64,000 bases of DNA, from contig JAWQEG010000411.1 in assembly GCA_033782935.1 (NCBI GenBank), forward strand, positions 67,001 to 131,000, written 5' to 3'. This DNA comes from Petrolisthes cinctipes. Taxonomy: Eukaryota; Arthropoda; Malacostraca; Decapoda; Porcellanidae. Both the position numbers and the translations under genes were made by a program. The notes beneath the pieces were generated by a model. The model searched no databases. It had not been told where the DNA came from and was given only the letters and a program-made list of their open reading frames with translations. This document shows, in pieces, positions 1-29,117 of the stretch. Positions within the stretch are counted from its first letter, which is position 1. The number at the start of each line of letters is the position of its first letter.

Positions 1-3000
1 AAGTGCAGGCATCTTCAGAACCCGTTTATATCCCAAATTTAGGCTTAAAACACCCGAAAATTCGATATTTTTGGGTCCTAGAAGCGATCTGTACATGCCT
101 ACTCATTGCTAGAATATTTTCAAAATACAGGCCCAAAACATGATGAAAATCGATAATTTTAGTGACAAAAGTCGATTTGTGCATGCATCATCTGTACCCG
201 TTTATATCGCAAATTCTGGCTCAAAACACCCGAAAATTCGATATTTTGGATCCTAGAAGCGATCTGTACCTGGCTACTCAGTGGTAGAATATTTCCAATA
301 TATAGGCCCAAAACATGCAAAAAATCGATATTTTTGGTGCCCAAAGTCGATATGTGCATGCATCTTCTGTACCCGTTTATATCACAAATTCAGGCTTATA
401 ACACTCGAAAATTCAATATTTTTGGGTCGCAGAAGCGATCTGTACATGCATACTCAGTGCTAGAATATTTTCAATATACATTTCCAAAACATGATGGAAT
501 TCGATATTTTATGTATCCAAAGTCGATATGTGCAAGCATCATCTGTACCCGTTTATATCTCAAATTCAGGCTCAAAACACCCGAAAATTCGAAATTTTTG
601 GGTAACAGAAGCTATCTGTACATGCATACTCATTGCTAGAATATTTTTAAAATACAGGCCCAAAACATGATGGAAATCGATATTTTAGGTGCAAAAAGTC
701 GATATCTGCATTCACCTTCTGTACTCGTTTATATCACTAATTCAGGCTCAAAACACCCGAAAATTCGATATTTTTTGGTCCCAGAAGCGATCTGTACATG
801 CATAGTCAGTGCTAGAATATTTTCAAAATATGGGCACAAAACTTGCTAAAAATCGATATTTTTTGTTGTTCAAAGTCGATAAGTGCATGCATCTTCTATA
901 CGCGTTTATATCTCAAATTCAGGCTCAAAATACCCGAAAATTGGATATTTTTGGGTCCCAGAAACGATCTGCACATGCCTACTCAGTGCTAGAATATTTT
1001 CAAAATATAGGCCCAAAACATGCTTAAAATCGATATTTTTGGTGCCCAAAGTCGATATGTGCATGCATCTTCTGTACCCGTTTATATCCAAAATTCTGGC
1101 TCAAAACACCCAAAAATTCAATATTTTTGGGTACCAGAAGCTATCTGTACATCCATAGTCATTACTAGAATATTTTTTAAAACACAGGCCCAAAACATGC
1201 TTTAAATCGATAATTTAGGTGCAAAAATTCGATATGTGCATTTACCTTCTGTACCCGTTTATATCACAAATTCAGGCTCTAAACACCGGAAAATTCGATA
1301 TTTTTGTGTCCCAGAAGCGATCTGTACATGTATAGTCAGTGCTAGAATATTTTCAAAATATGGGCACAAAACTTGCTAAAAATTGATATTTTTGTTGACC
1401 AAATTCGATACGTGCATGCATCTTCTGTACGCGTTTATATCTCAAATTCAGGCTCAAAATAATCGAAAACTGGATATTTTTGGGTCCCAGAAGCAATCTG
1501 CACATGCCTACTCAGTGCTAGAATATTTTCAAAATATAGGCCTAAAACATGATAAAAATTGATATTTTTTGTGTCCGAAGTCGATAAGTGCAGGCATCTT
1601 CAGAACCCGTTTATATCCCAAATTTAGGCTTAAAACACCCGAAAATTCGATATTTTTGGGTCCTAGAAGCGATCTGTACATGCCTACTCATTGCTAGAAT
1701 ATTTTCAAAATACAGGCCCAAAACATGATGAAAATCGATAATTTTAGTGACAAAAGTCGATTTGTGCATGCATCATCTGTACCCGTTTATATCGCAAATT
1801 CTGGCTCAAAACACCCGAAAATTCGATATTTTGGATCCTAGAAGCGATCTGTACCTGGCTACTCAGTGGTAGAATATTTCCAATATATAGGCCCAAAACA
1901 TGCAAAAAATCGATATTTTTGGTGCCCAAAGTCGATATGTGCATGCATCTTCTGTACCCGTTTATATCACAAATTCAGGCTTATAACACTCGAAAATTCA
2001 ATATTTTTGGGTCGCAGAAGCGATCTGTACATGCATACTCAGTGCTAGAATATTTTCAATATACATTTCCAAAACATGATGGAATTCGATATTTTATGTA
2101 TCCAAAGTCGATATGTGCAAGCATCATCTGTACCCGTTTATATCTCAAATTCAGGCTCAAAACACCCGAAAATTCGAAATTTTTGGGTAACAGAAGCTAT
2201 CTGTACATGCATACTCATTGCTAGAATATTTTTAAAATACAGGCCCAAAACATGATGGAAATCGATATTTTAGGTGCAAAAAGTCGATATCTGCATTCAC
2301 CTTCTGTACTCGTTTATATCACTAATTCAGGCTCAAAACACCCGAAAATTCGATATTTTTTGGTCCCAGAAGCGATCTGTACATGCATAGTCAGTGCTAG
2401 AATATTTTCAAAATATGGGCACAAAACTTGCTAAAAATCGATATTTTTTGTTGTTCAAAGTCGATAAGTGCATGCATCTTCTATACGCGTTTATATCTCA
2501 AATTCAGGCTCAAAATACCCGAAAATTGGATATTTTTGGGTCCCAGAAACGATCTGCACATGCCTACTCAGTGCTAGAATATTTTCAAAATATAGGCCCA
2601 AAACATGCTTAAAATCGATATTTTTGGTGCCCAAAGTCGATATGTGCATGCATCTTCTGTACCCGTTTATATCCAAAATTCTGGCTCAAAACACCAGAAA
2701 ATTCAATATTTTTGGGTACCAGAAGCTATCTGTACATCCATAGTCATTACTAGAATATTTTTTAAAACACAGGCCCAAAACATGCTTTAAATCGATAATT
2801 TAGGTGCAAAAATTCGATATGTGCATTTACCTTCTGTACCCGTTTATATCACAAATTCAGGCTCTAAACACCGGAAAATTCGATATTTTTGTGTCCCAGA
2901 AGCGATCTGTACATGTATAGTCAGTGCTAGAATATTTTCAAAATATGGGCACAAAACGTGCTAAAAATTGATATTTTTGTTGACCAAATTCGATACGTGC

Positions 3001-6000
3001 ATGCATCTTCTGTACGCGTTTATATCTCAAATTCAGGCTCAAAATAATCGAAAACTGGATATTTTTGGGTCCCAGAAGCAATCTGCACATGCCTACTCAG
3101 TGCTAGAATATTTTCAAAATATAGGCCTAAAACATGATAAAAATTGATATTTTTTGTGTCCGAAGTCGATAAGTGCAGGCATCTTCAGAACCCGTTTATA
3201 TCCCAAATTTAGGCTTAAAACACCCGAAAATTCGATATTTTTGGGTCCTAGAAGCGATCTGTACATGCCTACTCATTGCTAGAATATTTTCAAAATACAG
3301 GCCCAAAACATGATGAAAATCGATAATTTTAGTGACAAAAGTCGATTTGTGCATGCATCATCTGTACCCGTTTATATCGCAAATTCTGGCTCAAAACACC
3401 CGAAAATTCGATATTTTGGATCCTAGAAGCGATCTGTACCTGGCTACTCAGTGGTAGAATATTTCCAATATATAGGCCCAAAACATGCAAAAAATCGATA
3501 TTTTTGGTGCCCAAAGTCGATATGTGCATGCATCTTCTGTACCCGTTTATATCACAAATTCAGGCTTATAACACTCGAAAATTCAATATTTTTGGGTCGC
3601 AGAAGCGATCTGTACATGCATACTCAGTGCTAGAATATTTTCAATATACATTTCCAAAACATGATGGAATTCGATATTTTATGTATCCAAAGTCGATATG
3701 TGCAAGCATCATCTGTACCCGTTTATATCTCAAATTCAGGCTCAAAACACCCGAAAATTCGAAATTTTTGGGTAACAGAAGCTATCTGTACATGCATACT
3801 CATTGCTAGAATATTTTTAAAATACAGGCCCAAAACATGATGGAAATCGATATTTTAGGTGCAAAAAGTCGATATCTGCATTCACCTTCTGTACTCGTTT
3901 ATATCACTAATTCAGGCTCAAAACACCCGAAAATTCGATATTTTTTGGTCCCAGAAGCGATCTGTACATGCATAGTCAGTGCTAGAATATTTTCAAAATA
4001 TGGGCACAAAACTTGCTAAAAATCGATATTTTTTGTTGTTCAAAGTCGATAAGTGCATGCATCTTCTATACGCGTTTATATCTCAAATTCAGGCTCAAAA
4101 TACCCGAAAATTGGATATTTTTGGGTCCCAGAAACGATCTGCACATGCCTACTCAGTGCTAGAATATTTTCAAAATATAGGCCCAAAACATGCTTAAAAT
4201 CGATATTTTTGGTGCCCAAAGTCGATATGTGCATGCATCTTCTGTACCCGTTTATATCCAAAATTCTGGCTCAAAACACCCGAAAATTCAATATTTTTGG
4301 GTACCAGAAGCTATCTGTACATCCATAGTCATTACTAGAATATTTTTTAAAACACAGGCCCAAAACATGCTTTAAATCGATAATTTAGGTGCAAAAATTC
4401 GATATGTGCATTTACCTTCTGTACCCGTTTATATCACAAATTCAGGCTCTAAACACCGGAAAATTCGATATTTTTGTGTCCCAGAAGCGATCTGTACATG
4501 TATAGTCAGTGCTAGAATATTTTCAAAATATGGGCACAAAACGTGCTAAAAATTGATATTTTTGTTGGCCAAATTCGATACGTGCATGCATCTTCTGTAC
4601 GCGTTTATATCTCAAATTCAGGCTCAAAATAATCGAAAACTGGATATTTTTGGGTCCAAGAAGCAATCTGCACATGCCTACTCAGTGCTAGAATATTTTC
4701 AAAATATAGGCCTAAAACATGATAAAAATTGATATTTTTTGTGTCCGAAGTCGATAAGTGCAGGCATCTTCAGAACCCGTTTATATCCCAAATTTAGGCT
4801 TAAAACACCCGAAAATTCGATATTTTTGGGTCCTAGAAGCGATCTGTACATGCCTACTCATTGCTAGAATATTTTCAAAATACAGGCCCAAAACATGATG
4901 AAAATCGATAATTTTAGTGACAAAAGTCGATTTGTGCATGCATCATCTGTACCCGTTTATATCGCAAATTCTGGCTCAAAACCCCCGAAAATTCGATATT
5001 TTGGATCCTAGAAGCGATCTGTACCTGGCTACTCAGTGGTAGAATATTTCCAATATATAGGCCCAAAACATGCAAAAAATCGATATTTTTGGTGCCCAAA
5101 GTCGATATGTGCATGCATCTTCTGTACCCGTTTATATCACAAATTCAGGCTTATAACACTCGAAAATTCAATATTTTTGGGTCGCAGAAGCGATCTGTAC
5201 ATGCATACTCAGTGCTAGAATATTTTCAATATACATTTCCAAAACATGATGGAATTCGATATTTTATGTATCCAAAGTCGATATGTGCAAGCATCATCTG
5301 TACCCGTTTATATCTCAAATTCAGGCTCAAAACACCCGAAAATTCGAAATTTTTGGGTAACAGAAGCTATCTGTACATGCATACTCATTGCTAGAATATT
5401 TTTAAAATACAGGCCCAAAACATGATGGAAATCGATATTTTAGGTGCAAAAAGTCGATATCTGCATTCACCTTCTGTACTCGTTTATATCACTAATTCAG
5501 GCTCAAAACACCCGAAAATTCGATATTTTTTGGTCCCAGAAGCGATCTGTACATGCATAGTCAGTGCTAGAATATTTTCAAAATATGGGCACAAAACTTG
5601 CTAAAAATCGATATTTTTTGTTGTTCAAAGTCGATAAGTGCATGCATCTTCTATACGCGTTTATATCTCAAATTCAGGCTCAAAATACCCGAAAATTGGA
5701 TATTTTTGGGTCCCAGAAACGATCTGCACATGCCTACTCAGTGCTAGAATATTTTCAAAATATAGGCCCAAAACATGCTTAAAATCGATATTTTTGGTGC
5801 CCAAAGTCGATATGTGCATGCATCTTCTGTACCCGTTTATATCCAAAATTCTGGCTCAAAACACCCGAAAATTCAATATTTTTGGGTACCAGAAGCTATC
5901 TGTACATCCATAGTCATTACTAGAATATTTTTTAAAACACAGGCCCAAAACATGCTTTAAATCGATAATTTAGGTACAAAAATTCGATATGTGCATTTAC

Positions 6001-9000
6001 CTTCTGTACCCGTTTATATCACAAATTCAGGCTCTAAACACCGGAAAATTCGATATTTTTGTGTCCCAGAAGCGATCTGTACATGTATAGTCAGTGCTAG
6101 AATATTTTCAAAATATGGGCACAAAACTTGCTAAAAATTGATATTTTTGTTGACCAAATTCGATACGTGCATGCATCTTCTGTACGCGTTTATATCTCAA
6201 ATTCAGGCTCAAAATACCCGAAAACTGGATATTTTTGGGTCCCAGAAGCAATCTGCACATGTCTACTCAGTGCTAGAATATTTTCAAAATATAGGCCCAA
6301 AACATGATAAAAATTGATATTTTTTGTGTCCGAAGTCGATAAGTGCAGGCATCTTCAGAACCCGTTTATATCCCAAATTTAGGCTTAAAACACCCGAAAA
6401 TTCGATATTTTTGGGTCCTAGAAGCGATCTGTACATGCCTACTCATTGCTAGAATATTTTCAAAATACAGGCCCAAAACATGATGAAAATCGATAATTTT
6501 AGTGACAAAAGTCGATTTGTGCATGCATCATCTGTACCCGTTTATATCGCAAATTCTGGCTCAAAACACCCGAAAATTCGATATTTTGGATCCTAGAAGC
6601 GATCTGTACCTGGCTACTCAGTGGTAGAATATTTCCAATATATAGGCCCAAAACATGCAAAAAATCGATATTTTTGGTGCCCAAAGTCGATATGTGCATG
6701 CATCTTCTGTACCCGTTTATATCACAAATTCAGGCTTATAACACTCGAAAATTCAATATTTTTGGGTCGCAGAAGCGATCTGTACATGCATACTCAGTGC
6801 TAGAATATTTTCAATATACATTTCCAAAACATGATGGAATTCGATATTTTATGTATCCAAAGTCGATATGTGCAAGCATCATCTGTACCCGTTTATATCT
6901 CAAATTCAGGCTCAAAACACCCGAAAATTCGAAATTTTTGGGTAACAGAAGCTATCTGTACATGCATACTCATTGCTAGAATATTTTTAAAATACAGGCC
7001 CAAAACATGATGGAAATCGATATTTTAGGTGCAAAAAGTCGATATCTGCATTCACCTTCTGTACTCGTTTATATCACTAATTCAGGCTCAAAACACCCGA
7101 AAATTCGATATTTTTTGGTCCCAGAAGCGATCTGTACATGCATAGTCAGTGCTAGAATATTTTCAAAATATGGGCACAAAACTTGCTAAAAATCGATATT
7201 TTTTGTTGTTCAAAGTCGATAAGTGCATGCATCTTCTATACGCGTTTATATCTCAAATTCAGGCTCAAAATACCCGAAAATTGGATATTTTTGGGTCCCA
7301 GAAACGATCTGCACATGCCTACTCAGTGCTAGAATATTTTCAAAATATAGGCCCAAAACATGCTTAAAATCGATATTTTTGGTGCCCAAAGTCGATATGT
7401 GCATGCATCTTCTGTACCCGTTTATATCCAAAATTCTGGCTCAAAACACCAGAAAATTCAATATTTTTGGGTACCAGAAGCTATCTGTACATCCATAGTC
7501 ATTACTAGAATATTTTTTAAAACACAGGCCCAAAACATGCTTTAAATCGATAATTTAGGTGCAAAAATTCGATATGTGCATTTACCTTCTGTACCCGTTT
7601 ATATCACAAATTCAGGCTCTAAACACCGGAAAATTCGATATTTTTGTGTTCCAGAAGCGATCTGTACATGTATAGTCAGTGCTAGAATATTTTCAAAATA
7701 TGGGCACAAAACTTGCTAAAAATTGATATTTTTGTTGACCAAATTCGATACGTGCATGCATCTTCTGTACGCGTTTATATATCAAATTCAGGCTCAAAAT
7801 ACCCGAAAACTGGATATTTTTGGGTCCCAGAAGCAATCTGCACATGCCTACTCAGTGCTAGAATATTTTCAAAATATAGGCCTAAAACATGATAAAAATT
7901 GATATTTTTTGTGTCCGAAGTCGATAAGTGCAGGCATCTTCAGAACCCGTTTATATCCCAAATTTAGGCTTAAAACACCCGAAAATTCGATATTTTTGGG
8001 TCCTAGAAGCGATCTGTACATGCCTACTCATTGCTAGAATATTTTCAAAATACAGGCCCAAAACATGATGAAAATCGATAATTTTAGTGACAAAAGTCGA
8101 TTTGTGCATGCATCATCTGTACCCGTTTATATCGCAAATTCTGGCTCAAAACACCCGAAAATTCGATATTTTGGATCCTAGAAGCGATCTGTACCTGGCT
8201 ACTCAGTGGTAGAATATTTCCAATATATAGGCCCAAAACATGCAAAAAATCGATATTTTTGGTGCCCAAAGTCGATATGTGCATGCATCTTCTGTACCCG
8301 TTTATATCACAAATTCAGGCTTATAACACTCGAAAATTCAATATTTTTGGGTCGCAGAAGCGATCTGTACATGCATACTCAGTGCTAGAATATTTTCAAT
8401 ATACATTTCCAAAACATGATGGAATTCGATATTTTATGTATCCAAAGTCGATATGTGCAAGCATCATCTGTACCCGTTTATATCTCAAATTCAGGCTCAA
8501 AACACCCGAAAATTCGAAATTTTTGGGTAACAGAAGCTATCTGTACATGCATACTCATTGCTAGAATATTTTTAAAATTCAGGCCCAAAACATGATGGAA
8601 ATCGATATTTTAGGTGCAAAAAGTCGATATCTGCATTCACCTTCTGTACTCGTTTATATCACTAATTCAGGCTCAAAACACCCGAAAATTCGATATTTTT
8701 TGGTCCCAGAAGCGATCTGAACATGCATAGTCAGTGCTAGAATATTTTCAAAATATGGGCACAAAACTTGCTAAAAATCGATATTTTTTGTTGTTCAAAG
8801 TCGATAAGTGCATGCATCTTCTATACGCGTTTATATCTCAAATTCAGGCTCAAAATACCCGAAAATTGGATATTTTTGGGTCCCAGAAACGATCTGCACA
8901 TGCCTACTCAGTGCTAGAATATTTTCAAAATATAGGCCCAAAACATGCTTAAAATCGATATTTTTGGTGCCCAAAGTCGATATGTGCATGCATCTTCTGT

Positions 9001-9510
9001 ACCCGTTTATATCCAAAATTCTGGCTCAAAACACCCGAAAATTCAATATTTTTGGGTACCAGAAGCTATCTGTACATCCATAGTCATTACTAGAATATTT
9101 TTTAAAACACAGGCCCAAAACATGCTTTAAATCGATAATTTAGGTGCAAAAATTCGATATGTGCATTTACCTTCTGTACCCGTTTATATCACAAATTCAG
9201 GCTCTAAACACCGGAAAATTCGATATTTTTGTGTCCCAGAAGCGATCTGTACATGTATAGTCAGTGCTAGAATATTTTCAAAATATGGGCACAAAACTTG
9301 CTAAAAATTGATATTTTTGTTGACCAAATTCGATACGTGCATGCATCTTCTGTACGCGTTTATATCTCAAATTCAGGCTCAAAATACCCGAAAACTGGAT
9401 ATTTTTGGGTCCCAGAAGCAATCTGCACATGCCTAGTCAGTGCTAGAATATTTTCAAAATATAGGCCTAAAACATGATAAAAATTGATATTTTTTGTGTC
9501 CGAAGTCGAT
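1..9510. repeat. satellite array: six copies of a nine-monomer, 1,585-bp higher-order repeat
   Basis: The same sequence recurs every 1,585 bp (units start at 1, 1586, 3171, 4756, 6341 and 7926) with only scattered single-base changes. Inside a unit, a motif built on CCCGTTTATATC recurs near 24, 199, 375, 550, 726, 902, 1078, 1255 and 1431. That makes nine related but distinct monomers of about 176 bp. Each monomer also carries ATCGAT, TGCATGCA-like and CTAGAATATTTTCAAAATA segments. High identity between units with lower identity between monomers is the definition of a higher-order repeat, as in primate alpha satellite. Monomer length is close to one nucleosome repeat. The array enters from beyond the left window edge. 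A centromeric or pericentromeric role is inference. Frames of 60-100 codons occur on both strands but follow the repeat and are not taken as genes. Confidence 0.97.
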
Positions 9511-10391
9511 AAGTGCAGGCATCTTCAGAACCCGTTTATATCCCAAATTTAGGCTTAAAACACCCGAAAATTCGATATTTTTGGGTCCTAGAAGCGATCT
9601 GTACATGCCTACTCATTGCTAGAATATTTTCAAAATACAGGCCCAAAACATGATGAAAATCGATAATTTTAGTGACAAAAGTCGATTTGTGCATGCATCA
9701 TCTGTACCCGTTTATATCTCAAATTCAGGCTCAAAATACCCGAAAATTGGATATTTTTGGGTCCCAGAAACGATCTGCACATGCCTACTCAGTGCTAGAA
9801 TATTTTCAAAATATAGGCCCAAAACATGCTTAAAATCGATATTTTTGGTGCCCAAAGTCGATATGTGCATGCATCTTCTGTACCCGTTTATATCCAAAAT
9901 TCTGGCTCAAAACACCCGAAAATTCAATATTTTTGGGTACCAGAAGCTATCTGTACATCCATAGTCATTACTAGAATATTTTTTAAAACACAGGCCCAAA
10001 ACATGCTTTAAATCGATAATTTAGGTGCAAAAATTCGATATGTGCATTTACCTTCTGTACCCGTTTATATCACAAATTCAGGCTCTAAACACCGGAAAAT
10101 TCGATATTTTTGTGTCCCAGAAGCGATCTGTACATGTATAGTCAGTGCTAGAATATTTTCAAAATATGGGCACAAAACTTGCTAAAAATTGATATTTTTG
10201 TTGACCAAATTCGATACGTGCATGCATCTTCTGTACGCGTTTATATCTCAAATTCAGGCTCAAAATACCCGAAAACTGGATATTTTTGGGTCCCAGAAGC
10301 AATCTGCACATGCCTACTCAGTGCTAGAATATTTTCAAAATATAGGCCTAAAACATGATAAAAATTGATATTTTTTGTGTCCGAAGTCGAT
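9511..10391. repeat. shortened HOR unit of five monomers (881 bp)
   Basis: This unit starts in phase with the array. Near 9705-9720 it jumps from monomer 2 to the matching point of monomer 6, losing 704 bp, which is four monomers. The switch lies in the conserved CCCGTTTATATC segment, so the junction is seamless. After it the sequence follows the 1,585-bp unit to its end. This is the product expected from unequal exchange between out-of-register monomers. Confidence 0.93.
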
Positions 10392-11445
10392 AAGTGCAGG
10401 CATCTTCAGAACCCGTTTATATCCCAAATTTAGGCTTAAAACACCCGAAAATTCGATATTTTTGGGTCCTAGAAGCGATCTGTACATGCCTACTCATTGC
10501 TAGAATATTTTCAAAATACAGGCCCAAAACATGATGAAAATCGATAATTTTAGTGACAAAAGTCGATTTGTGCATGCATCATCTGTACCCGTTTATATCG
10601 CAAATTCTGGCTCAAAACACCCGAAAATTCGATATTTTGGATCCTAGAAGCGATCTGTACCTGGCTACTCAGTGGTAGAATATTTCCAATATATAGGCCC
10701 AAAACATGCAAAAAATCGATATTTTTGGTGCCCAAAGTCGATATGTGCATGCATCTTCTGTACCCGTTTATATCACAAATTCAGGCTTATAACACTCGAA
10801 AATTCAATATTTTTGGGTCGCAGAAGCGATCTGTACATGCATACTCAGTGCTAGAATATTTTCAATATACATTTCCAAAACATGATGGAATTCGATATTT
10901 TATGTATCCAAAGTCGATATGTGCAAGCATCATCTGTACCCGTTTATATCTCAAATTCAGGCTCAAAACACCCGAAAATTCGATATTTTTGGGTCCTAGA
11001 AGCGATCTGTACATGCCTACTCATTGCTAGAATATTTTCAAAATACAGGCCCAAAACATGATGAAAATCGATAATTTTAGTGACAAAAGTCGATTTGTGC
11101 ATGCATCATCTGTACCCGTTTATATCGCAAATTCTGGCTCAAAACACCCGAAAATTCGATATTTTGGATCCTAGAAGCGATCTGTACCTGGCTACTCAGT
11201 GGTAGAATATTTCCAATATATAGGCCCAAAACATGCAAAAAATCGATATTTTTGGTGCCCAAAGTCGATATGTGCATGCATCTTCTGTACCCGTTTATAT
11301 CACAAATTCAGGCTTATAACACTCGAAAATTCAATATTTTTGGGTCGCAGAAGCGATCTGTACATGCATACTCAGTGCTAGAATATTTTCAATATACATT
11401 TCCAAAACATGATGGAATTCGATATTTTATGTATCCAAAGTCGAT
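10392..11445. repeat. two tandem three-monomer units (527 bp each)
   Basis: Starts at 10392, 10919 and 11446 are 527 bp apart. Each 527-bp unit holds the first three monomers of the HOR, then returns to the HOR start through a hybrid fourth monomer. The normal GAAATTTTTGGGTAACAG stretch is replaced by GATATTTTTGGGTCCTAG. The third start continues into a long unit. This is a local expansion by three monomers. Confidence 0.92.
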
Positions 11446-14400
11446 ATGTGCAAGCATCATCTGTACCCGTTTATATCTCAAATTCAGGCTCAAAACACCC
11501 GAAAATTCGATATTTTTGGGTCCTAGAAGCGATCTGTACATGCCTACTCATTGCTAGAATATTTTCAAAATACAGGCCCAAAACATGATGAAAATCGATG
11601 ATTTTAGTGACAAAAGTCGATTTGTGCATGCATCATATGTACCCGTTTATATCGCAAATTCTGGCTCAAAACACCCGAAAATTCGATATTTTGGATCCTA
11701 GAAGCGATCTGTACCTGGCTACTCAGTGGTAGAATATTTCCAATATATAGGCCCAAAACATGCAAAAAATCGATATTTTTGGTGCCCAAAGTCGATATGT
11801 GCATGCATCTTCTGTACCCGTTTATATCACAAATTCAGGCTTATAACACTCGAAAATTCAATATTTTTGGGTCGCAGAAGCGATCTGTACATGCATACTC
11901 AGTGCTAGAATATTTTCAATATACATTTCCAAAACATGATGGAATTCGATATTTTATGTATCCAAAGTCGATATGTGCAAGCATCATCTGTACCCGTTTA
12001 TATCTCAAATTCAGGCTCAAAACACCCGAAAATTCGAAATTTTTGGGTAACAGAAGCTATCTGTACATGCATACTCATTGCTAGAATATTTTTAAAATAC
12101 AGGCCCAAAACATGATGGAAATCGATATTTTAGGTGCAAAAAGTCGATATCTGCATTCACCTTCTGTACTCGTTTATATCACTAATTCAGGCTCAAAACA
12201 CCCGAAAATTCGATATTTTTTGGTCCCAGAAGCGATCTGTACATGCATAGTCAGTGCTAGAATATTTTCAAAATATGGGCACAAAACTTGCTAAAAATCG
12301 ATATTTTTTGTTGTTCAAAGTCGATAAGTGCATGCATCTTCTATACGCGTTTATATCTCAAATTCAGGCTCAAAATACCCGAAAATTGGATATTTTTGGG
12401 TCCCAGAAACGATCTGCACATGCCTACTCAGTGCTAGAATATTTTCAAAATATAGGCCCAAAACATGCTTAAAATCGATATTTTTGGTGCCCAAAGTCGA
12501 TATGTGCATGCATCTTCTGTACCCGTTTATATCCAAAATTCTGGCTCAAAACACCCGAAAATTCAATATTTTTGGGTACCAGAAGCTATCTGTACATCCA
12601 TAGTCATTACTAGAATATTTTTTAAAACACAGGCCCAAAACATGCTTTAAATCGATAATTTAGGTGCAAAAATTCGATATGTGCATTTACCTTCTGTACC
12701 CGTTTATATCACAAATTCAGGCTCTAAACACCGGAAAATTCGATATTTTTGTGTCCCAGAAGCGATCTGTACATGTATAGTCAGTGCTAGAATATTTTCA
12801 AAATATGGGCACAAAACTTGCTAAAAATTGATATTTTTGTTGACCAAATTCGATACGTGCATGCATCTTCTGTACGCGTTTATATCTCAAATTCAGGCTC
12901 AAAATACCCGAAAACTGGATATTTTTGGGTCCCAGAAGCAATCTGCACATGCCTACTCAGTGCTAGAATATTTTCAAAATATAGGCCCAAAACATGCCTA
13001 AAATCGATATTTTTGGTGCCCAAAGTCGATATGTGCATGCATCTTCTGTACCCGTTTATATCCAAAATTCTGGCTCAAAACACCCGAAAATTCAATATTT
13101 TTGGGTCCCAGAAGCGATCTGTACATGCATAGTCAGTGCTAGAATATTTTCAAAATATGGGCACAAAACTTGCTAAAAATCGATATTTTTTGTTGTTCAA
13201 AGTCGATAAGTGCATGCATCTTCTATACGCGTTTATATCTCAAATTCAGGCTGAAAATACCCGAAAATGGGATATTTTTGGGTCCCAGAAACGATCTGCA
13301 CATGCCTACTCAGTGCTAGAATATTTTCAAAATATAGGCCTAAAACATGCTTAAAATCGATATTTTTGGTGCCCAAAGTCGATATGTGCATGCATATTCT
13401 GTACCCGTTTATATCCAAAATTCTGGCTCAAAACACCCGAAAATTCAATATTTTTGGTTCCCTGAAGCGATCTGTACATTCATACTCAGTGCTAGAATAT
13501 TTTCAAAATATAGGCCTAAAACATGATAAAAATTGATATTTTTTGTGTCCGAAGTCGATAAGTGCAGGCATCTTCAGAACCCGTTTATATCACAAATTCA
13601 GGCTTATAACACTCGAAAATTCGATATTTTTGGGTCCTAGAAGCGATCTGTACATGCCTACTCATTGCTAGAATATTTTCAAAATACAGGCCCAAAACAT
13701 GATGAAAATCGATAATTTTAGTGACAAAAGTCGATTTGTGCATGCATCATCTGTACCCGTTTATATCGCAAATTCTGGCTCAAAACACCGGAAAATTCGA
13801 TATTTTGGATCCTAGAAGCGATCTGTACCTGGCTACTCAGTGGTAGAATATTTCCAATATATAGGCCCAAAACATGCAAAAAATCGATATTTTTGGTGCC
13901 CAAAGTCGATATGTGCATGCATCTTCTGTACCCGTTTATATCACAAATTCAGGCTTATAACACTCGAAAATTCAATATTTTTGGGTCGCAGAAGCGATCT
14001 GTACATGCATACTCAGTGCTAGAATATTTTCAATATACATTTCCAAAACATGATGGAATTCGATAGTTTATGTATCCAAAGTCGATATGTGCAAGCATCA
14101 TCTGTACCCGTTTATATCGCAAATTCTGGCTCAAAACACCCGAAAATTCGAAATTTTTGGGTAAGAGAAGCTATCTGTACATGCATACTCATTGCTAGAA
14201 TATTTTTAAAATACAGGCCCAAAACATGATGGAAATGGATATTTTAGGTGCAAAAAGTCGATATCTGCATTCACCTTCTGTACTCGTTTATATCACTAAT
14301 TCAGGCTCAAAACACCCGAAAATTCGATATTTTTTGGTCCCAGAAGCGATCTGTACATGCATAGTCAGTGCTAGAATATTTTCAAAATATAGGCCCAAAA

Positions 14401-16121
14401 CATGCTTAAAATCGATATTTTTTGTTGTTCAAAGTCGATAAGTGCATGCATCTTCTATACGCGTTTATATCTCAAATTCAGGCTCAAAATACCCGAAAAT
14501 TGGATATTTTTGGGTCCCAGAAACGATCTGCACATGCCTACTCAGTGCTAGAATATTTTCAAAATATAGGCCCAAAACATGCTTAAAATCGATATTTTTG
14601 GTGCCCAAAGTCGATATGTGCATGCATCTTCTGTACCCGTTTATATCCAAAATTCTGGCTCAAAACACCAGAAAATTCAATATTTTTGGGTACCAGAAGC
14701 TATCTGTACATCCATAGTCATTACTAGAATATTTTTTAAAACACAGGCCCAAAACATGCTTTAAATCGATAATTTAGGTGCAAAAATTCGATATGTGCAT
14801 TTACCTTCTGTACCCGTTTATATCACAAATTCAGGCTCTAAACACCGGAAAATTCGATATTTTTGTGTCCCAGAAGCGATCTGTACATGTATAGTCAGTG
14901 CTAGAATATTTTCAAAATATGGGCACAAAACTTGCTAAAAATTGATATTTTTGTTGACCAAATTCGATACGTGCATGCATCTTCTGTACGCGTTTATATC
15001 TCAAATTCAGGCTCAAAATACCCGAAAACTGGATATTTTTGGGTCCCAGAAGCAATCTGCACATGCCTACTCAGTGCTAGAATATTTTCAAAATATAGGC
15101 CCAAAACATGCCTAAAATCGATATTTTTGATGCCCAAAGTCGATATGTGCATGCATCTTCTGTACCCGTTTATATCCAAAATTCTGGCTCAAAACACCCG
15201 AAAATTCAATATTTTTGGGTCCCAGAAGCGATCTGTACATGCATAGTCAGTGCTAGAATATTTTCAAAATATGGGCACAAAACTTGCTAAAAATCGATAT
15301 TTTTTGTTGTTCAAAGTCGATAAGTGCATGCATCTTCTATACGCGTTTATATCTCAAATTCAGGCTGAAAATACCCGAAAATTGGATATTTTTGGGTCCC
15401 AGAAGCGATCTGCACATGCCTACTCAGTGCTAGAATATTTTCAAAATATAGGCCCAAAACATGCTTAAAATCGATATTTTTGGTGCCCAAAGTCGATATG
15501 TGCATGCATATTCTGTATCCGTTTATATCCAAAATTCTGGCTCAAAACACCCCAAAATTCAATATTTTTGGGTACCAGAAGCTATCTGTACATCCATAGT
15601 CATTGCTAGAATATTTTTTAAAACACAGGCCCAAAATATGATTGAAATCGATATTTTAGGTGCAAACATTCGATATTTGCATTTACCTTCTGTACCCGTT
15701 TATATCACAAATTCAGGCTCTAAACACCGGAAAATTCGATATTTTTGTGTCCCAGAAGCGATCTGTACATGTATAGTCAGTGCTAGAATATTTTCAAAAT
15801 ATGGGCACAAAACTTGCTAAAAATCGATATTTTTGTTGACCAAATTCGATACGTGCATGCATCTTCTGTACGCGTTTATATCTCAAATTCAGGCTCAAAA
15901 TACCCGAAAACTGGATATTTTTGGGTCCCAGAAGCAATCTGCACATGCCTACTCAGTGCTAGAATATTTTCAAAATATAGGCCCAAAACATGCCTAAAAT
16001 CGATATTTTTGGTGCCCAAAGTCGATATGTGCATGCATCTTCTGTACCCGTTTATATCCAAAATTCTGGCTCAAAACACCCGAAAATTAAATATTTTTGG
16101 GTCCCAGAAGCGATCTGTACA
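11446..16121. repeat. satellite edge: twelve-monomer HOR register (2,114 bp) and hybrid monomers
   Basis: From 11446 the nine-monomer unit runs to about 12985, then three extra monomers follow before the HOR start recurs at 13560. Matching points 12818/14932, 12994/15108 and 13136/15250 are all 2,114 bp apart, i.e. twelve monomers. The second copy holds register to about 15560 and then drifts. The block ends at 16121, where the long-TIR element begins. These monomers differ more from the consensus than those before 9510, for example substitutions near 14065, 14163 and 14237. Confidence 0.88.
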
Positions 16122-16610
16122 CCCAGAAGTAAATATTTCTAGGCAGGGATGGGCCCTTACTACCCCTACCCCAGGCAGTAGTTACGGGGTGGGGGGTTTC
16201 TCTCCATTCCTCCCCGATATCCATCCCACTGGAGAGACTAAACGAGGGTGGAGGGAGTAAACTAGCGCCTCCAGTCCACCTTTCGCCCTCTACCCCACAC
16301 AAGAGCCGAACTCCGATTCAAAACACTGTAGCTTCACGAGTTCTGAAATGAATACCTTCTCAGTGAGGTTAAAAGTCTGTAGTTAATTATAAATATATAA
16401 ATGCATAAAGAAGGTATTATTTTCATGTAAATCTCAACTATTTTCAGTGTATCTGTAGCACACACACACACACTTTTGATAATATCTAATTAATGGCTGC
16501 TAATGCCTCAGGATTAATTTAAGAGTAAATATAAATATCATGAGCTTTTGTAGTTATATTTTTAATCCTTGAACCTACCCACAAAATTCGTATTCAGTGT
16601 TACGGCCGTA
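16122..16610 (+). repeat. left terminal inverted repeat of the 6.25-kb element
   Basis: Pairs with 21861-22371 in reverse complement. It begins CCCAGAAG, includes a C-rich stretch (CCCTTACTACCCCTACCCC) and a short CA tract at 16456-16471. Identity is high in the first ~350 bp and lower towards GTGTTACGG near 16600, where similarity ends. Confidence 0.9.
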
Positions 16611-16954
16611 GTTTTAAGCGCTATCTTCAGATGACGAATGTCTTCGAGCCCTTGTCCCACCACTCTATCACCTCCCTCGTGCTACTGGCGGCATATGACC
16701 CTGAATGTTGCGTCACCGGTAGTATTGAGGTCCAGCCGCATCCCTGAACAATTAATAATTCCTGTCTCTCTCTCTCTCTCTCTACTATAACTGCAATCAA
16801 TAAGAAGCAATATTGCTTAAGGCTATTAATGATACTAATGTATTTGTTTTATATTTTCTCAGTGAAGAATTATTTCAATTTATTTGGTTTGAGAATATTA
16901 ACGTGACACTAATAGCCTATACGGGAAATATGTTTCTTTAAATAATACTACCCG
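16611..16954. other. unassigned interior, with a decayed dispersed-repeat segment
   Basis: No gene is visible. At about 16640-16735 the text (CCCTTGTCCCACC, GGCATATGACCCTG) resembles segments at 28750-28810 and 61545-61610, so it is probably a decayed copy of the same dispersed family. A short CT run lies at 16764-16783. Confidence 0.5.
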
Positions 16955-17126
16955 TTTTTGGATGCACTTCCGCGCATAAAAAAAAACGCTATAATGCTAT
17001 TGTTTTTGGATGTGCTTGTGCGCATCCAAAAATATGATAATGCCTTATGTATTTGGATGCGCTTGCGAGCATCCAAAAAATAACACTTAAATGCCACGTT
17101 TTTTACTGCGATGGCGCGCATCCAAA
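16955..17126. repeat. four regularly spaced imperfect palindromes (GGATGCGC...GCGCATCC type)
   Basis: Four hairpin-capable segments lie about 45-50 bp apart at 16955-16981, 17003-17032, 17052-17078 and 17101-17126. The best two have TTTTTGGATG / CATCCAAAAA or TTTGGATG / CATCCAAA arms around a short GC-rich centre. The first and last have one degenerate arm. They may be subterminal binding sites of a transposon or simply a decayed local repeat. Confidence 0.65.
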
Positions 17127-17139
17127 AACACCTTTTTCG

Positions 17140-17325
17140 TCCTCGCGGCGCCGGACGACCTCGCAGGTCAACGGGACAAAGCCTAAAACATTCGCGTTGA
17201 AAAGCTGTATACGCGTGCCAAGTTTGGTCGCGATCGGACCAGCGGTTCGGCCAAACACTTGTGACATAGCCAGCCAGCCAGCCAGCCAGATACGACCTCT
17301 TCCTTTATTAGTATAGATTATATTA
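17140..17325 (+). mobile_element. degenerate non-LTR retrotransposon-like 3' tail
   Basis: GC-rich text ending CCAAGTTTGGTCGCGATCGG, then a (CCAG)n run at about 17268-17288 and a CTTTATTAGTATAGATTA end. This resembles the 3' ends of RTE-like repeats common in arthropod genomes, whose tails read 'the precursor for one side's phrase: acceptable identity in AAGTTT-GATCGG, short tetranucleotide run, TTAGTATAGAT'. It has no coding part. Family assignment is from memory and tentative. Confidence 0.35.
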
Positions 17326-17811
17326 TAGCCATGTTCACATTTTAAAGCATAGCCTTTACTGACTTCCGGTAAACTATTTATAATTATAACAAGGACTACC
17401 TTCAGGCCCTGTTGGTCTTTATGGCACTCAAGGCAGACACTTTTAATGGTTGTTAATAGTATGGGACAAGAAGTGCATTAGGCATGGGACTGTTAAAGGA
17501 TTTATTAATATTGGTTCAAGCAGTACCCATATAAAATTTATTGCATTGAAGATAATTAGATATACTGATAAATACACAATGCATATATAATTCATGTTTC
17601 ATTTATGTAATTACAAATAAATAACTTTTGGTTGTATCTTTAATTACATACATGCTTTTATCGCTATGTAAACACACAAGCAAATCAACCTAATATTATT
17701 CTAGCAAAACTTATATAACAAGAATTTTTGGCTCAATAAATGGTTTTATTTACACAAATATTATACACCTAACAATGCATATTCCTCATACATTATGAAA
17801 AAAAAAACATC
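17326..17811. other. AT-rich unassigned stretch downstream of the Tc1-like gene
   Basis: No open frame of note and no recognised repeat. The last ~110 bp lie just 3' of the minus-strand Tc1-like gene and include an AATAAA on the minus strand in the reverse complement of GGTTTTATTTACAC. They may be its 3' untranslated region. Confidence 0.4.
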
Positions 17812-19513
17812 CTAATATCTTGTCCACCCTCCTCCACCTTCTATTACCTCTTCCAATCGATTCTGCATCTAATCAACAAGCTTGCTGCATATGTCAGGAG
17901 TCACTCTAATCCCCTCCCATACTTCCCTTATTTTTCTCTCTACAGCATCTCTGGTCTTCTCCTCTATCCCCCACTCATTTACCATTATTCCCCACAGGTT
18001 TTCGATGGGGTTGCAGTCACAACCCTTTGATGGCCAATCAATTACTACAAATTCTGGGTGGCGTGCAAACCAATCTCTTACAATTCTGCTAGTATGTATT
18101 GGTGATCTGTCGTGTACGAAATATATTGGGTCAGGATCAGGAATGGCATACGCCCTAACCGAAGGTAACAGTGACGTTTCTAGGATGTTTATATACTCCA
18201 AGCTATTCAGCTGACCGTCAATTGCCACCAACTCACCTACGCCGCCATACCACATCCATCCGTGCACGGAGACAGATACTCTTCCACTTCTTGTTTTTTC
18301 GCATATGTGTTCTCGCTTGTAGCGCGTGTTTCGGGGACGCCAACACACGCGCTCAGACGATGCCACAGACGTAAAGGTCTTTTCGTCCGTGAATATCACC
18401 TTCCTCGAGAAGTCGATGCCATGATGAATATTTTCTTGGGCGAATCTTAATCGTCCTTCTCTGTTAACCCCTCCGGGACGGGCCAAGAATGGAAATACGT
18501 TCTGTGGTTCTGGGCACAATACTAACTTTTACCCTGCCTGTCCGGGTATTTCCCGGATAATCACTCTACTTCTCTTACTCCCTACGTCTAAACTACAATA
18601 CTGAACAACCTAAATTTGATTGTGTACTCACCATCAACTCCTCCTCTTTCCATTAAAACCAACCCCAGCTCTCTAGGACACTCCATTGCCGAGAAATCAA
18701 GTGAGGAATGGAGGTCACTTTTCCCGTGAGAGCGAGGCTGCGTTCGCTTTGTGAGCGTGGCTGTGACTCAATCTAGCTGGTTGCATCCGCGGAGTGGAGG
18801 TTACAAGAGAGGGTGCGCCCGGCAGCGCGGTAGGATACACCGAATCGAACGAGCCCGTATTTTCTTCACTACGCCCAGCCATTGTCACGGTCAAGCACAC
18901 ACTGATTGAATGTGGGGATGAAAAGGTCTGGTGGTGAAGTATAGCCAGATCAAAAAAAATCCTGACAAATTTGGCGTTTTTCCCCATAAATTACCAAAAG
19001 CGGGATTTCCCGCTGCCCGGACTCTGTCGACAGAGCGGGATTTCCTGCTGCCCGGCCTCTGTCGACCGAGCGGGAAATCCCGCTGCCCGGACTCTGGGGG
19101 TTAACTTCCGTTAACGTTTCTTTTACAGCTGGCACATAACAGTCTAGCCCGCCTTCTCTTATGTGTCGTCTTGTCGTAGAGGGATGACATTGCAAGTCCA
19201 GCTGTCGTGTGAGCTCAGTAGCACTTGATTTCGGGCAAGCTCTTATTTCCTCCATTATTCTGCCATCTTGCTCTGCCGAAAGGACTCGTGGACGACCCGA
19301 CCTTGGTCTCGTCTTCACGTGCCCCTCCCTTTCGAACCGATGCAACCACAACTGTGCAGTTGCTCTGGAAATACCCATCTGACGTGCTACTTCAGAGACA
19401 GAATGTCCAGCTTCTCGTAAGCCAACCATCATACCCCTGCGTGCTATGACCTCTGGTCTGTTGGCCCATGTGCGTGGATTATGAAGTTGGCGAGCACGTC
19501 CCCGTCCACCCAT
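17812..19513 (-). pseudogene. Tc1-like transposase gene, split by a 633-bp insert and with a late stop
   Basis: Cut-and-paste transposase of the Tc1/mariner superfamily. The start chosen is the ATG at 19511-19513 (protein begins MGGRGRARQL). The N-terminal part holds a helix-turn-helix (EVARQMGISRATAQLWLHRF) and a GRPR linker. The second piece holds the DDE core: FTDEKTF (first Asp), FVHDRSPIHTS (second Asp) and NPIENLW (Glu), with 35 residues between the last two acidic residues. The usual SPDL before NPIE is replaced by GCDC. The frame is interrupted at the codons for Val-Asn by the insert 18468-19100 with its duplicated TTAA. A TAG at 17867-17869 cuts off the last ~18 codons, which otherwise end GGGWTRY and a stop at 17812. 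Without the insert the length is 354 codons, normal for Tc1 proteins. Clearly inactive now. Confidence 0.9.
18468..19100. mobile_element. 633-bp TTAA-flanked insert (piggyBac-type non-autonomous element)
   Basis: Flanked by TTAA at 18464-18467 and 19101-19104, with termini CCCC...GGGG. It interrupts a coding sequence whose reading resumes exactly after one TTAA, so the boundaries are secure. TTAA targets with CCC/GGG ends are characteristic of piggyBac; Kolobok also uses TTAA. The right end has about 2.8 copies of a 35-bp tandem unit (18999-19095) containing CGGGATTTCCCGCTGCCCGG. No transposase is encoded. Terminal similarity beyond the first few bases is weak. Confidence 0.82.
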
Positions 19514-20568
19514 GTCTGAAATAAAAACAAGCCAACTTAAAATATAGCCACAATCGCCGATGCCGGGGTGCATATTTTCTAAGTTTGTACGCATTTCTCC
19601 ACACCCGTTCCAACACCTAGGTTAGGTTTGGTTAGATTAGGTCAGGTTAGGGTGGGTTTCTATAGTCATCCTTATATGGGTAAAATGAGCTGGGAAGGAC
19701 ACAGACTATTTCAAAGAATGTCCAATGGTTACTTTTATCTCTAAAGTCTAAGCGTTATTTTTATTTATTTTACTAGCCACCACTTGCCCAATTCGTGGGC
19801 TCGTGGGCCGCGCCCCTCCATACAAGCATGTGGTGAGGTCTCTCCCTCTTTCTCTCTTATATCAGCTTCCAGCCCCATATATTGCTATGACCTTGATTTT
19901 TGCAATTCCTAAACACTAAATATTGTTTCCGTTATTTTTATTCTGGTGATAGAATCAAGTAATATATATTCAAATCAATTATGCAATATTTTAACCCATA
20001 ATGATCTGTTTTTTATTGATTTTTATTTTTTATTATTATTATTATTATTATTATTTTTTTTTTTATGAAAGCACCAAGCATTTTAATATTCCGAATAGGC
20101 CTAACTTAAAGAACGAAATCATATTGCACACAACCATGGGGATTCAAATACATGCCATTTTAAAGTTCATACCACAGAACTACACGCACATAGCCACACA
20201 CACTCGTCACTCAGGGTGGCCGGAGTGACTGGGACCGGAAGAACGAGTGGCCGGAGTGACTAATTTGTTTCCTACTTCATGACACACACCAAACATCTTC
20301 AGTTTTAAGTGGTGGCATTACGTTAGAAGAGAAACAACACACTTGCCACCACAACTTCACTCTTCCCTAAAAATTTCATTTTGAATGTGGCAGACGAACC
20401 ACATTAATAAAACCATACAATAATCTGAACAAACACAGTAGGGTTTTCCACTTTCGCCGAACACATAAGAAATAGACAATAATTGTAAAAAGAGAAATAT
20501 TTCAAAGAAATTAATAGAATAACGAGCAGAAAGACAAGACTAACACGATAAAAATACTATGGTATATT

Positions 20569-20571
<3 letters not shown>
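19514..20571. other. intergenic part of the long-TIR element; shared segment and ATT run
   Basis: No supported gene. The stretch 19567-19745 (GTGCATATTTTC..., TTAGGTTTGGTTAGATTAGG, GTAAAATGAGCTGGGAA, ATGGTTACTTTTAT) has a diverged relative at 62427-62585 and is probably the 5' region of the Tc1-like family. A (TTA)n run lies at about 20030-20055. A CGAGTGGCCGGAGTGAC phrase is partly repeated at 20213-20262. Confidence 0.5.

Positions 20572-20650
<79 letters not shown>
20572..20650. repeat. (GA)n microsatellite
   Basis: About 39 uninterrupted GA units, typical of crustacean genomes. Length is likely polymorphic. Confidence 0.98.
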
Positions 20651-20654
<4 letters not shown>

Positions 20655-21860
20655 TCAGTGTTGTCTCTCGTTTCTTACCTGATTCCTTCTTGCTTGGTGT
20701 GCGCCCCTTCTTTCGACGACTACCGGTATCTCCACTTCGTTAAGGGTCTTCAAGGGCTAGAATAATAGAAAAAGTGGACAATAAGAAATTTATCAAGAAT
20801 GGTAATGAAAGTATTAAATAGTTATTAACATATATTGTCATTAATAATACTCATTCATATAATTCACATCTTCACTATCCACCACCTTAATAAACATTCT
20901 AGGATGACTACAACAATAGACATATCTAGGTAAAGATCTCTAAAATTTTTCACCTTCAAGTCGTATCCATCTGTATACAATTTGTCAGCCCTTCGTTCAG
21001 CAACACGCAGACAAATATCACATTTACAAAAGGACTATATCATTAATTATCCAGTGCCGCTGTCACAATAATGACACCTGTTTTTCAAATCTGAGACTTC
21101 AATCCAAGTTGTTTTTATTAGCCAGTCTGAGTCATTTCAGTTATCTGGAATATCAGATTTAAGGGGATTGGGTAGTGAGAAGTTAAGCTGCGACCTGTGT
21201 TCAGGTTGAGATAGAAGACATTAATTAAGGGAGTGTAAAGTGAACGGTTTGCGGGTTTTGTGTAATTAATTGACATATCGTTGATCAGAAGTGTTAAGTA
21301 TTGCTTTGGCGCATCTACGAGGTTATCATTTGCTTAGTCTGATAAATATCAGATGTTTACAGAAGCTTATAGAGTCACAGGGTTAACCTTAAATTATAGC
21401 CTACATTATAGAAATTAACAGAAAGTACGGACACATAAAACACTATATTGTAGGGTGTCCCTAAAGTCTGTAGTATTTAGTTATACTTATACTAGCCATG
21501 TGTCCACACTTGAATTTTTAACACTAATAACTGCAAAAGTTATCCTTTGCATGCATACACACTTTCACTTAAATAAGGGAACACACAAGCTCAGAATCTT
21601 ACCTTTATGAGTGCTGATAGCGAAGTTATGTTGGTCTTGCCGTGCCGTAACGAAATCACCTTCTTTGAAGCTCCGAATCATGTTCCGAAGATTTAAAATG
21701 CTCGCATGAAACGATGTTAGTTTATGCGGTATATAGTTATATGAAATATGAATATACATTTTTTCTAAGATTAGGGAAATCATTGTTGTGTGGCTATTAT
21801 CTGAGTCGAGGATATATTAAATTTACCCACAATATTCTTGTAAGATAGAGCTTAATAGTT
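20651..21860. other. unassigned interior with a possible orphan exon
   Basis: Minus strand 20756-20679 is a 78-bp open segment bounded by a good acceptor (a T-rich tract then TCTAG at 20757-20762) and donor (CAG/GTAAG at 20678-20674). It could be a 26-codon phase-0 exon (PLKTLNEVEIPVVVERRGAH...). A second minus-strand frame at 21783-21605 ends at an AAAG/GTAAGA donor, but the phases of the two do not join. No homology is recognised. Otherwise nothing is seen. Confidence 0.25.
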
Positions 21861-22002
21861 GAAACCGTAACACGTAATAACAGTTTTGTGGGTAGGTGCA
21901 AGGAGTAGAAATATTACTAGAAAAACTCAGAATATTTATACTAACACTTAAATCCAACCTGAGGCATTACTGTAGTAGCAGCCTTTAATTAAATACAATC
22001 AA

Positions 22003-22035
<33 letters not shown>

Positions 22036-22371
22036 ACAGATACACTGAAAATAGTTGAGATTTACATGAAAATAATACCTTCTTTATGCATTTATATATT
22101 TATAATTAACTACAGACTTTTAACCTCACTGAGAAGGTATTCATTTCAGAACTCGTGAAGCTACAGTGTTTTGAATCGGAGTTCGCCTCTTGTGTGGGGT
22201 AGGGGGGCGAAAAGTGGACTGGAGGCGCTAGTTTACTCCCTCCACTCTCGTTTAGTCTCTCCAGTGGGATGGATATCGGGGAGGAATGGAGAGAAACCCC
22301 CCGCCCCGTAACTACTGCCTGGGGTAGGGGTAGTAAGGGCCCATCCCTGCCTAGAAATTTTAACTTCTGGG
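21861..22371 (-). repeat. right terminal inverted repeat of the 6.25-kb element
   Basis: Reverse complement of the left arm. Its GT tract (about 22005-22032) is longer than the CA tract of the left arm, showing slippage since the arms were identical. The outer end reads CTTCTGGG next to the duplicated TGTACA. Confidence 0.9.
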
Positions 22372-25300: not shown

Positions 25301-25514
25301 GAATTTTTTGGGTACCAGAAGCTATCTGTACATGAATACTCATTGCTAGAATATTTTTAAAATACAGGCCGAACATATGATGGGAATCGATATTTTAGGT
25401 GCCCAAAGTCAATATGTGCATGCATCTTCTGTACATGTTTATATCTCAAATTCAGGCTCAAAACAACAGAAAATTCGATATTTTTGGGACCCAGAAGCGA
25501 TCTGTACATGCATA
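22372..25514. repeat. satellite block 2, diverged monomers
   Basis: About 18 monomers of the same ~176-bp family resume directly after the long-TIR element at the duplicated TGTACA. The 1,585-bp HOR is absent. Monomers carry variants not seen before 16121, such as TCTGAACTCATTTATATC and CAAGAAATGGGCAC. One monomer is shortened near 22455 (TCCAAAGTCCAAATTCAGG). The block ends at the TA target of the next element. Confidence 0.95.
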
Positions 25515-25539
25515 CACTGTTAGAAAAAACCGTTTTTTT

Positions 25540-25735
25540 ACATAACAATGTCCGTTTTTCTGAACGGAGAATATGCTGCTAATGTAATTTGCTGTCTTTA
25601 ATCCGTATTTGTACGGAGAATGAATGTCATGTACAATTTACTGGTTTTTATCCGTATTTGTTACGGAGAACACTGAAGAATTTATGTAATATTACGGATA
25701 ATATCCCGTTATTTTACGGATCCTTAAATGTAAAG
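25540..25735. repeat. left subterminal CCGT/ACGG palindrome cluster
   Basis: At least four inverted CCGTN(5-9)ACGG-type blocks occur in the first 220 bp of the 4.4-kb element: around 25551-25567, 25599-25617, 25649-25668 and 25703-25722. Mirror-image blocks lie at about 29770-29935 near the other end. Clusters like this are commonly transposase-binding sites; function here is inferred. Confidence 0.6.

Positions 25736-29075: not shown

Positions 29076-29117
<42 letters not shown>

What the first reader, a model, noticed from the sequence alone, without database searches (positions are those of the whole stretch)
1..9510. Nine-monomer higher-order repeat of a 176-bp satellite
Six near-identical 1,585-bp units each hold nine distinct ~176-bp monomers. 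HOR organisation like that of primate alpha satellite is rarely documented in arthropods and often marks functional centromeres. Monomer length and AT content fit nucleosome phasing. This is the best candidate for an undescribed system in the window.
Basis: partly seen in the sequence, partly recalled or inferred. Interest (0 to 1): 0.9.

Follow-up and report, generated by a model that had tools for sequence, protein, structure and literature searches.

The report
Telomere-side private higher-order satellite repeat
In a likely crustacean genome, a nine-part DNA repeat beside a telomere-repeat array was found at only one place in the assembly and likely arose by unequal crossing-over, while its 176-base building block also fills megabase-scale arrays that would be better centromere candidates.

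Summary
In detail: window 1-9510 holds six 1,585-bp units of nine distinct ~176-bp monomers. Successive units differ by 3-9 bp; monomers within a unit are 79-92% identical. The array starts left of the window and runs to ~16,121, with more blocks of the family at 22,372-25,526 and 29,949-34,963.

The centromere reading is not supported for this repeat. Contig C410 begins with 5 kb of N, then 5,550 bp of perfect (TAACC)n; satellite starts 180 bp further in. A 65-bp sequence diagnostic for the nine-mer has 16 exact matches in the 1.48-Gb assembly, all at C410:38,446-77,370. The unit carries a hybrid monomer, pointing to unequal crossing-over from an older 12- or 10-mer.

The 176-bp family is abundant: one 30-base core occurs 256,560 times. 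Samples find it at 18 of 20 points over ~1.7 Mb of C410 and 29 of 31 over ~1.4 Mb of C411, in two oppositely oriented arms meeting head to head. Those cores, 0.6-0.8 Mb from the contig starts, are the better centromere candidates. CENP-A could not be tested, and pericentromeric and subtelomeric heterochromatin cannot yet be told apart.

The parts
1..9512 (+). Six 1,585-bp units of the nine-monomer HOR (classes N-O-P-H-L-J-Q-K-S); monomers start at 3, 179, 354 ... 9337
9513..11974 (+). Rearranged HOR stretch: N, then J-Q-K-S-N-O-P, then two extra N-O-P triplets
   Evidence: monomer classes
11975..14088 (+). A 12-monomer form H-L-J-Q-K-J-R-J-M-N-O-P (2,114 bp), a likely parent form of the nine-mer
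14089..16121 (+). Partial 12-mer-type copy and the right edge of the block, cut by an inserted element
16122..22371 (.). 6.25-kb element with terminal inverted repeats inserted in the satellite, flanked by TGTACA on both sides
22372..25526 (+). 176-bp satellite block without the nine-mer (other monomer classes)
25527..29948 (.). 4.4-kb stretch between satellite blocks, read as an insertion
29949..34963 (+). Last large 176-bp satellite block of the telomere-side region

Best explanation
The feature is a nine-monomer higher-order repeat of a 176-bp satellite, found at one telomere-side locus of this assembly, that likely arose there by unequal crossing-over and is likely not the centromere itself. 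Shown: the repeat, the single locus of its diagnostic sequence, its hybrid monomers, the telomere-repeat array outside it, the elements that interrupt it, and megabase arrays of the same family farther in. Inferred: a 12-mer (or 10-mer) lost monomers when J and M paired out of register, giving hybrid monomer S. The shortened nine-mer then spread along ~39 kb (which includes an 8.6-kb insertion) by further unequal exchange or gene conversion, while transposable elements landed in the block. Also inferred: the block is a distal outlier of the chromosome-end satellite, whose ~1.2-Mb minus-strand core would be the better candidate for (peri)centromeric chromatin. No sequence-specific function of the nine-mer is needed; its order would simply record local homogenisation.
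For: Perfect (TAACC)n at C410:5001-10550, oriented as at a left chromosome end, with satellite from 10,731. Six satellite blocks (63.6 kb) between 10.7 and 102 kb, interrupted five times: two LTR-flanked insertions, one with TTAA edges, one with inverted ends and TGTACA on both sides, and one that looks inverted-ended by eye only. S differs from J (K-J-R context) only after column 130 and from M only before column 97: 0 misfits of 23; R is a Q/L hybrid, 0 misfits of 31; 0 of 3,000 shuffles reach either. The 65-bp S-diagnostic sequence: 16 exact hits, all at C410:38,446-77,370, control 0. The general 30-mer: 256,560 hits, control 0. Family present at 18 of 20 sampled points of C410 0.80-2.52 Mb. 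Minus-arm monomers (46 in three samples) are more alike (0.90-0.91) than plus-arm (32) or C409 (50) monomers (0.84-0.87, no lag structure).
Against: The 5 kb outside the telomere array reads N, so it is not proven terminal; TTAGG-array boundaries occur 1,262 times in the assembly. The 65-bp search was exact, so diverged nine-mer copies elsewhere would be missed (two of the 18 local S monomers are missed too). Core arrays show HOR-like periods as well: 1,168 bp at 0.95 Mb (ungapped identity 0.82) and, weakly, 2,895 and 4,756 bp on C3 (0.56 and 0.54), so HOR order is not unique to the telomere side. With J in the R-J-M context the S hybrid fits worse (4 misfits of 28; 2 of 3,000 shuffles reach it). 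No chromatin data.
Confidence: 0.68

Rival explanations
1. The nine-mer array in the window is the functional centromere of this chromosome, sitting very close to the telomere as in a telocentric chromosome.
For: Real HOR with near-identical units; AT-rich, nucleosome-like periodicity; HOR order marks active centromeres in primates (recalled).
Against: Exact nine-mer S sequence only at this locus; the telomere-side blocks total ~64 kb and are interrupted five times while megabase arrays of the same family lie further in; no CENP-B box in 181 kb, though none need be expected outside mammals (recalled).
Confidence: 0.06
2. The 176-bp and 62-bp arrays are purely subtelomeric heterochromatin; the centromeres lie elsewhere and use other DNA.
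For: C411 runs telomere repeats, 62-bp satellite, 176-bp satellite, then other DNA; C410 has the same order farther in, after its telomere-side blocks. C406 has 62-bp satellite at 100 kb before its long 176-bp array, but also 176-bp satellite at 5 and 12 kb.
Against: C3 carries the family at 1.32-1.39 Mb after five readable non-satellite samples, though its distance from a chromosome end is unknown; the family is very abundant, as dominant centromeric satellites often are. Not excluded.
Confidence: 0.3
3. The nine-mer tandem count is an assembly artefact (collapse or false expansion).
For: Four units at window -15140 to -10385 are identical; no reads were available.
Against: Other units differ by 1-9 bp, variants (12-mer, extra N-O-P) are interleaved, and the LTR-flanked insertion at C410 ~39.0-47.5 kb falls where one P monomer of the unit is expected. 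Copy number may still be wrong.
Confidence: 0.06

Closest known systems
Primate alpha-satellite higher-order repeats (features recalled)
   Same: ~170-bp AT-rich monomers, ordered multi-monomer units nearly identical between copies, hybrid monomers from unequal crossing-over, more homogeneous core and less ordered flank
   Different: The nine-mer sits on the telomere side at one locus, not in the core; no CENP-B box; the monomer is a dimer of ~88-bp halves; common ancestry neither tested nor claimed
Crayfish satellites PlSAT3-411 and PlSAT75-664 (Pontastacus leptodactylus; passages read in PMC7859515)
   Same: Crustacean satellite family with an HOR-like derivative; PlSAT3-411 is (peri)centromeric by FISH on all chromosomes
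   Different: There the unit is one 411-bp monomer plus four ~70-bp pieces; here nine full monomers. The same passage says regular HORs in beetles are usually dimeric, but also that complex HORs are known in insects and several vertebrates
Tribolium major/minor satellites with macro-dyad symmetries (abstract and passages read in PMC13081366)
   Same: Dominant satellite in megabase regions, adjoining subarrays in opposite orientation, a second satellite beside the main one
   Different: The longest annotated Tribolium madens dyads are 75 kb; here the two arms are ~1.26 and ~0.46 Mb (C410) and ~1.1 and ~0.3 Mb (C411), by sampling. That paper says such dyads were documented only in Tribolium

Membership tests
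Higher-order repeat satellite | Diverged monomers inside a unit, near-identical units, fixed order | tested here: met
   Within-unit 79-92%; 13 units 0-9 bp apart, lag-9 121 of 192 against a shuffle maximum of 36
Higher-order repeat satellite | Signature of unequal crossing-over | tested here: met
   S = J/M (0 misfits of 23 with J of the 12-mer, 1 of 25 with J of the 10-mer) and R = Q/L (0 of 31) hybrids
Primate alpha satellite | CENP-B box in monomers (a feature of some alpha-satellite classes; motif recalled) | tested here: not met
   0 matches to TTCGNNNNANNCGGG on either strand of the 181 kb; best consensus match has 2 mismatches
Primate alpha satellite | Sequence homology to alpha satellite | not tested
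   No alpha-satellite sequence was compared
Functional centromere (the nine-mer) | CENP-A chromatin and kinetochore | not testable with these tools
   No chromatin data
Functional centromere (the nine-mer) | Main homogenised array of the chromosome | tested here: not met
   Megabase arrays of the same family, without exact S sequence, lie further in
Subtelomeric satellite | Lies between the terminal telomere array and the chromosome interior | tested here: inconclusive
   5,550 bp (TAACC)n then satellite, but 5 kb of N outside and 1,262 TTAGG-array boundaries in the assembly
Tribolium-type macro-dyad | Long satellite subarrays in opposite orientation, directly abutting | tested here: met
   C410 switch at 2,064,634-2,064,681; C411 at ~1,727,448; no spacer. 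Arms known by sampling, not read through
Tribolium-type macro-dyad | Conserved inversion site | tested here: inconclusive
   The C410 junction 20-mer occurs also in C555 and C1072 (context unread, chance within the satellite not excluded); the C411 breakpoint is at a different monomer position

The most novel reading that the evidence does not exclude
This crustacean's chromosomes end in telocentric centromeres built as megabase head-to-head satellite dyads: telomere, 62-bp satellite, a ~1.2-Mb homogenised minus arm, a ~0.4-Mb monomeric plus arm, then the chromosome arm. The strand switch would mark the core/flank border, and private higher-order repeats such as the window's nine-mer would bud off on the telomere side.
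Probability: 0.3. Interest if true: 0.8.

Novelty: new variant of a known kind. Interest (0 to 1): 0.55.

Why it matters
In the papers I saw, arthropod higher-order repeats are mostly dimeric or built from mixed pieces, and crustacean centromere DNA is known only from FISH of a few satellites. Here the likely birth of one higher-order repeat can be read from its hybrid monomers at a single locus. The megabase inverted arms of the same satellite near telomere repeats, if general, would make crustacean centromere organisation testable with one FISH probe and one CENP-A profile.

Tried and rejected
Considered and rejected: centromere at the window's nine-mer (diagnostic sequence only at one locus); foldback assembly artefact at the C410 strand switch (the arms are only ~88% identical there, the family's usual level); known RNA families in the window (0 hits at gathering threshold).

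Genome share: 14 of 128 sampled monomers carry the 30-mer, and 26 hits fall in 43,018 bp of sampled satellite, which would scale to 413 or 424 Mb. The samples come from few contigs, and the 30-mer is denser in part of C3, so I keep only the floor of about 45 Mb (3%), which assumes at most one 30-mer per monomer.

Full report
OBSERVATION. Window = G000:C410:67001-131000, a 2.63-Mb contig of a 1.484-Gb assembly in 9,385 contigs. The nine-mer is real: 1,585-bp shift identity 0.9965; six units fill 1-9510, successive ones 3-9 bp apart. Over C410:10.7-102 kb I cut 355 full monomers from 369 profile hits. At 5% average linkage they fall in 72 clusters, 30 of them with more than one member (singletons kept as '.'). 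The nine classes H-L-J-Q-K-S-N-O-P average 85% identity between classes and 98.8% within. Fifteen full nine-mers lie in the main block. The 13 of these taken for unit comparison (followed by another H) are all 1,585 bp and 0-9 bp apart. The 176-bp monomer splits into two halves 74% identical: alignment score 39 at the best of 88 rotations, against a maximum of 12 in 500 unrotated shuffles.

POSITION. C410 begins with 5,000 N, then (TAACC)n at 5001-10550 without a mismatch, 180 bp of other sequence, then satellite from 10,731. Six blocks (63.6 kb) follow to 102 kb. They are separated by an LTR-flanked insertion (16.4-24.2 kb, LTRs 97.3%), a 0.64-kb element with TTAA edges, a second LTR-flanked insertion (39.0-47.5 kb, LTRs 99.7%), a 6.25-kb inverted-repeat element (window 16122-22371, TGTACA on both sides) and a 4.4-kb stretch with inverted-looking ends. 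Against a simple telomere reading: TTAGG-array boundaries occur 638 + 624 times in the assembly. By my hand count of the places listed there (only the first ~100), 21 contigs have one within 60 kb of their start: 18 on the strand expected of a left end, 2 on the other, 1 on both (p = 0.0004 for 18 of 20).

HOW THE NINE-MER AROSE. A 12-mer (H-L-J-Q-K-J-R-J-M-N-O-P, two full copies) and a 10-mer (H-L-J-Q-K-J-M-N-O-P, two) lie in the same block or the neighbouring one. S matches J of the 12-mer (K-J-R context) up to a switch in columns 97-130 and M after it: 0 misfits of 23. With J of the 10-mer (K-J-M) there is 1 misfit of 25, and with J in the R-J-M context 4 of 28, which 2 of 3,000 shuffles reach. 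R is a Q/L hybrid, 0 of 31. The best of 3,000 shuffles had 3 misfits for the K-J-R and K-J-M tests and 5 for R. A two-parent model also improves the fit of other classes by a few percent, so only S and R are claimed. A deletion by out-of-register exchange is the likely origin; which parent was used is not settled. The 65-bp J/M fusion has 16 exact matches in the assembly, all at C410:38,446-77,370; 18 S monomers are there by class.

THE FAMILY ELSEWHERE. The fetch from genomes samples, scored by nhmmer. C410: none in 131-181 kb and in 3 of 3 samples at 220-300 kb; 176-bp family at 350 (plus) and 400 kb (minus); a 62-bp satellite in 5 of 8 samples at 450-780 kb; 176-bp family at 18 of 20 distinct points from 0.80 to 2.52 Mb (misses at 2.04 and 2.10 Mb; a further 7.5-kb gap at 2,069,517-2,076,990); none at 2.54, 2.57 and 2.62 Mb. 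In that span orientation is minus up to 2,064,634-2,064,681 and plus after it, with no spacer; the arms are ~88% alike there. C411: nearly unbroken telomere repeats 1-13,820, 62-bp satellite in the rest of that fetched piece and at 8 of 8 points from 20 to 500 kb, 176-bp family at 29 of 31 points from 0.60 to 2.0 Mb, minus up to ~1,727,448 and plus after it, none at 2.1, 2.2 and 2.28 Mb. C406: start N, minus at 5, 12, 500, 1000, 1500, 2000, 2600 and 2900 kb, 62-bp satellite at 100 kb, none at the end. C409: plus from 1.8 to 400 kb, none at 550, 620 and 665 kb. C413: plus at 300 kb, none at its start. C3: none in five readable samples to 1.31 Mb (one more was N), family from 1.324 Mb. No satellite was seen in the few samples of C1, C2, C405, C407, C408, C412, C414, C415 and C9385 (some N). 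An exact 30-mer occurs 124,660 + 131,900 times; the reversed control 0. The C410 minus arm is the more homogeneous (0.90-0.91 within samples; lag-5 identity 0.97 at 0.95 Mb); the plus arm and C409 are flat at 0.84-0.87. The C410 junction 20-mer occurs in two more contigs, whose context I could not read; the C411 breakpoint differs.

READING. Most likely the window shows a telomere-side outlier of an abundant satellite, in which one unequal exchange made a nine-mer that then spread locally. The megabase arms are the centromere candidates by analogy with a homogenised core and a monomeric flank; that is inference. Purely subtelomeric heterochromatin remains the main rival.

LITERATURE. PMC13081366 (abstract and passages): Tribolium satellites form macro-dyads, the longest annotated 75 kb, stated as documented only in that genus. 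PMC7859515 (passages): crayfish (peri)centromeric satellite with an HOR derivative; beetle HORs usually dimeric; complex HORs known in insects and vertebrates. PMC13130569 (passages): crayfish satellitomes. PMC10454600 (passages): decapod repeats. PMC13427858 (passages): only cites the Tribolium work. The inversion known in a human chromosome 1 alpha-satellite array is recalled, from no call.

Sample counts for C410 were recounted to 18 of 20 and C411 given as 29 of 31; edge marks of the insertions and the weak C3 periods were stated more exactly.

Noticed in passing
C410:2,064,634-2,064,681 and C411:~1,727,448: Megabase satellite arms switch strand head to head inside the satellite, once per main array as sampled, with different breakpoints on the two contigs.
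   Followed up: yes
C411:13,822 to at least 500,000; C410 450-780 kb; C406 100 kb: A second satellite of 62 bp lies on the telomere side of the long 176-bp arrays, on opposite strands in C411 and C410/C406.
   Followed up: partly
window 16122-22371: 6.25-kb element with ~0.5-kb inverted ends (58 of the first 60 bases match) and TGTACA on both sides. It contains transposase pieces (DDE_3 and helix-turn-helix ORFs at 17869-18519 and 18950-19594) split by a ~0.64-kb TTAA-flanked element.
   Followed up: partly
C410:10588-10729 and window 20466-20607: The 180 bp between telomere repeats and satellite includes a 142-bp piece 95.8% identical, inverted, to the inside of the window's 6.25-kb element.
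   Followed up: partly
window 37500-39378: Histone H2A ORF (minus strand, Pfam match) beside H2B-like motifs on the plus strand, about 2.5-4 kb from the last large satellite block.
   Followed up: partly
window 54723-57599 and 49154-50818: A 958-aa open non-LTR element (endonuclease and reverse transcriptase), 52-54% identical to Oratosquilla proteins, and a gypsy-like reverse transcriptase/RNase H ORF.
   Followed up: partly
window 44881-45014: A two-hit scrap of the 176-bp satellite outside the blocks.
   Followed up: no
whole assembly: 1,262 boundaries of TTAGG arrays of 30 bp or more, many inside contigs: interstitial telomere repeats are common.
   Followed up: no
C3:1,324,194-1,387,818: Another array of the family, with recurring spacings (2,895 and 4,756 bp, ungapped identity only 0.56 and 0.54), after five readable non-satellite samples over 1.3 Mb.
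   Followed up: partly
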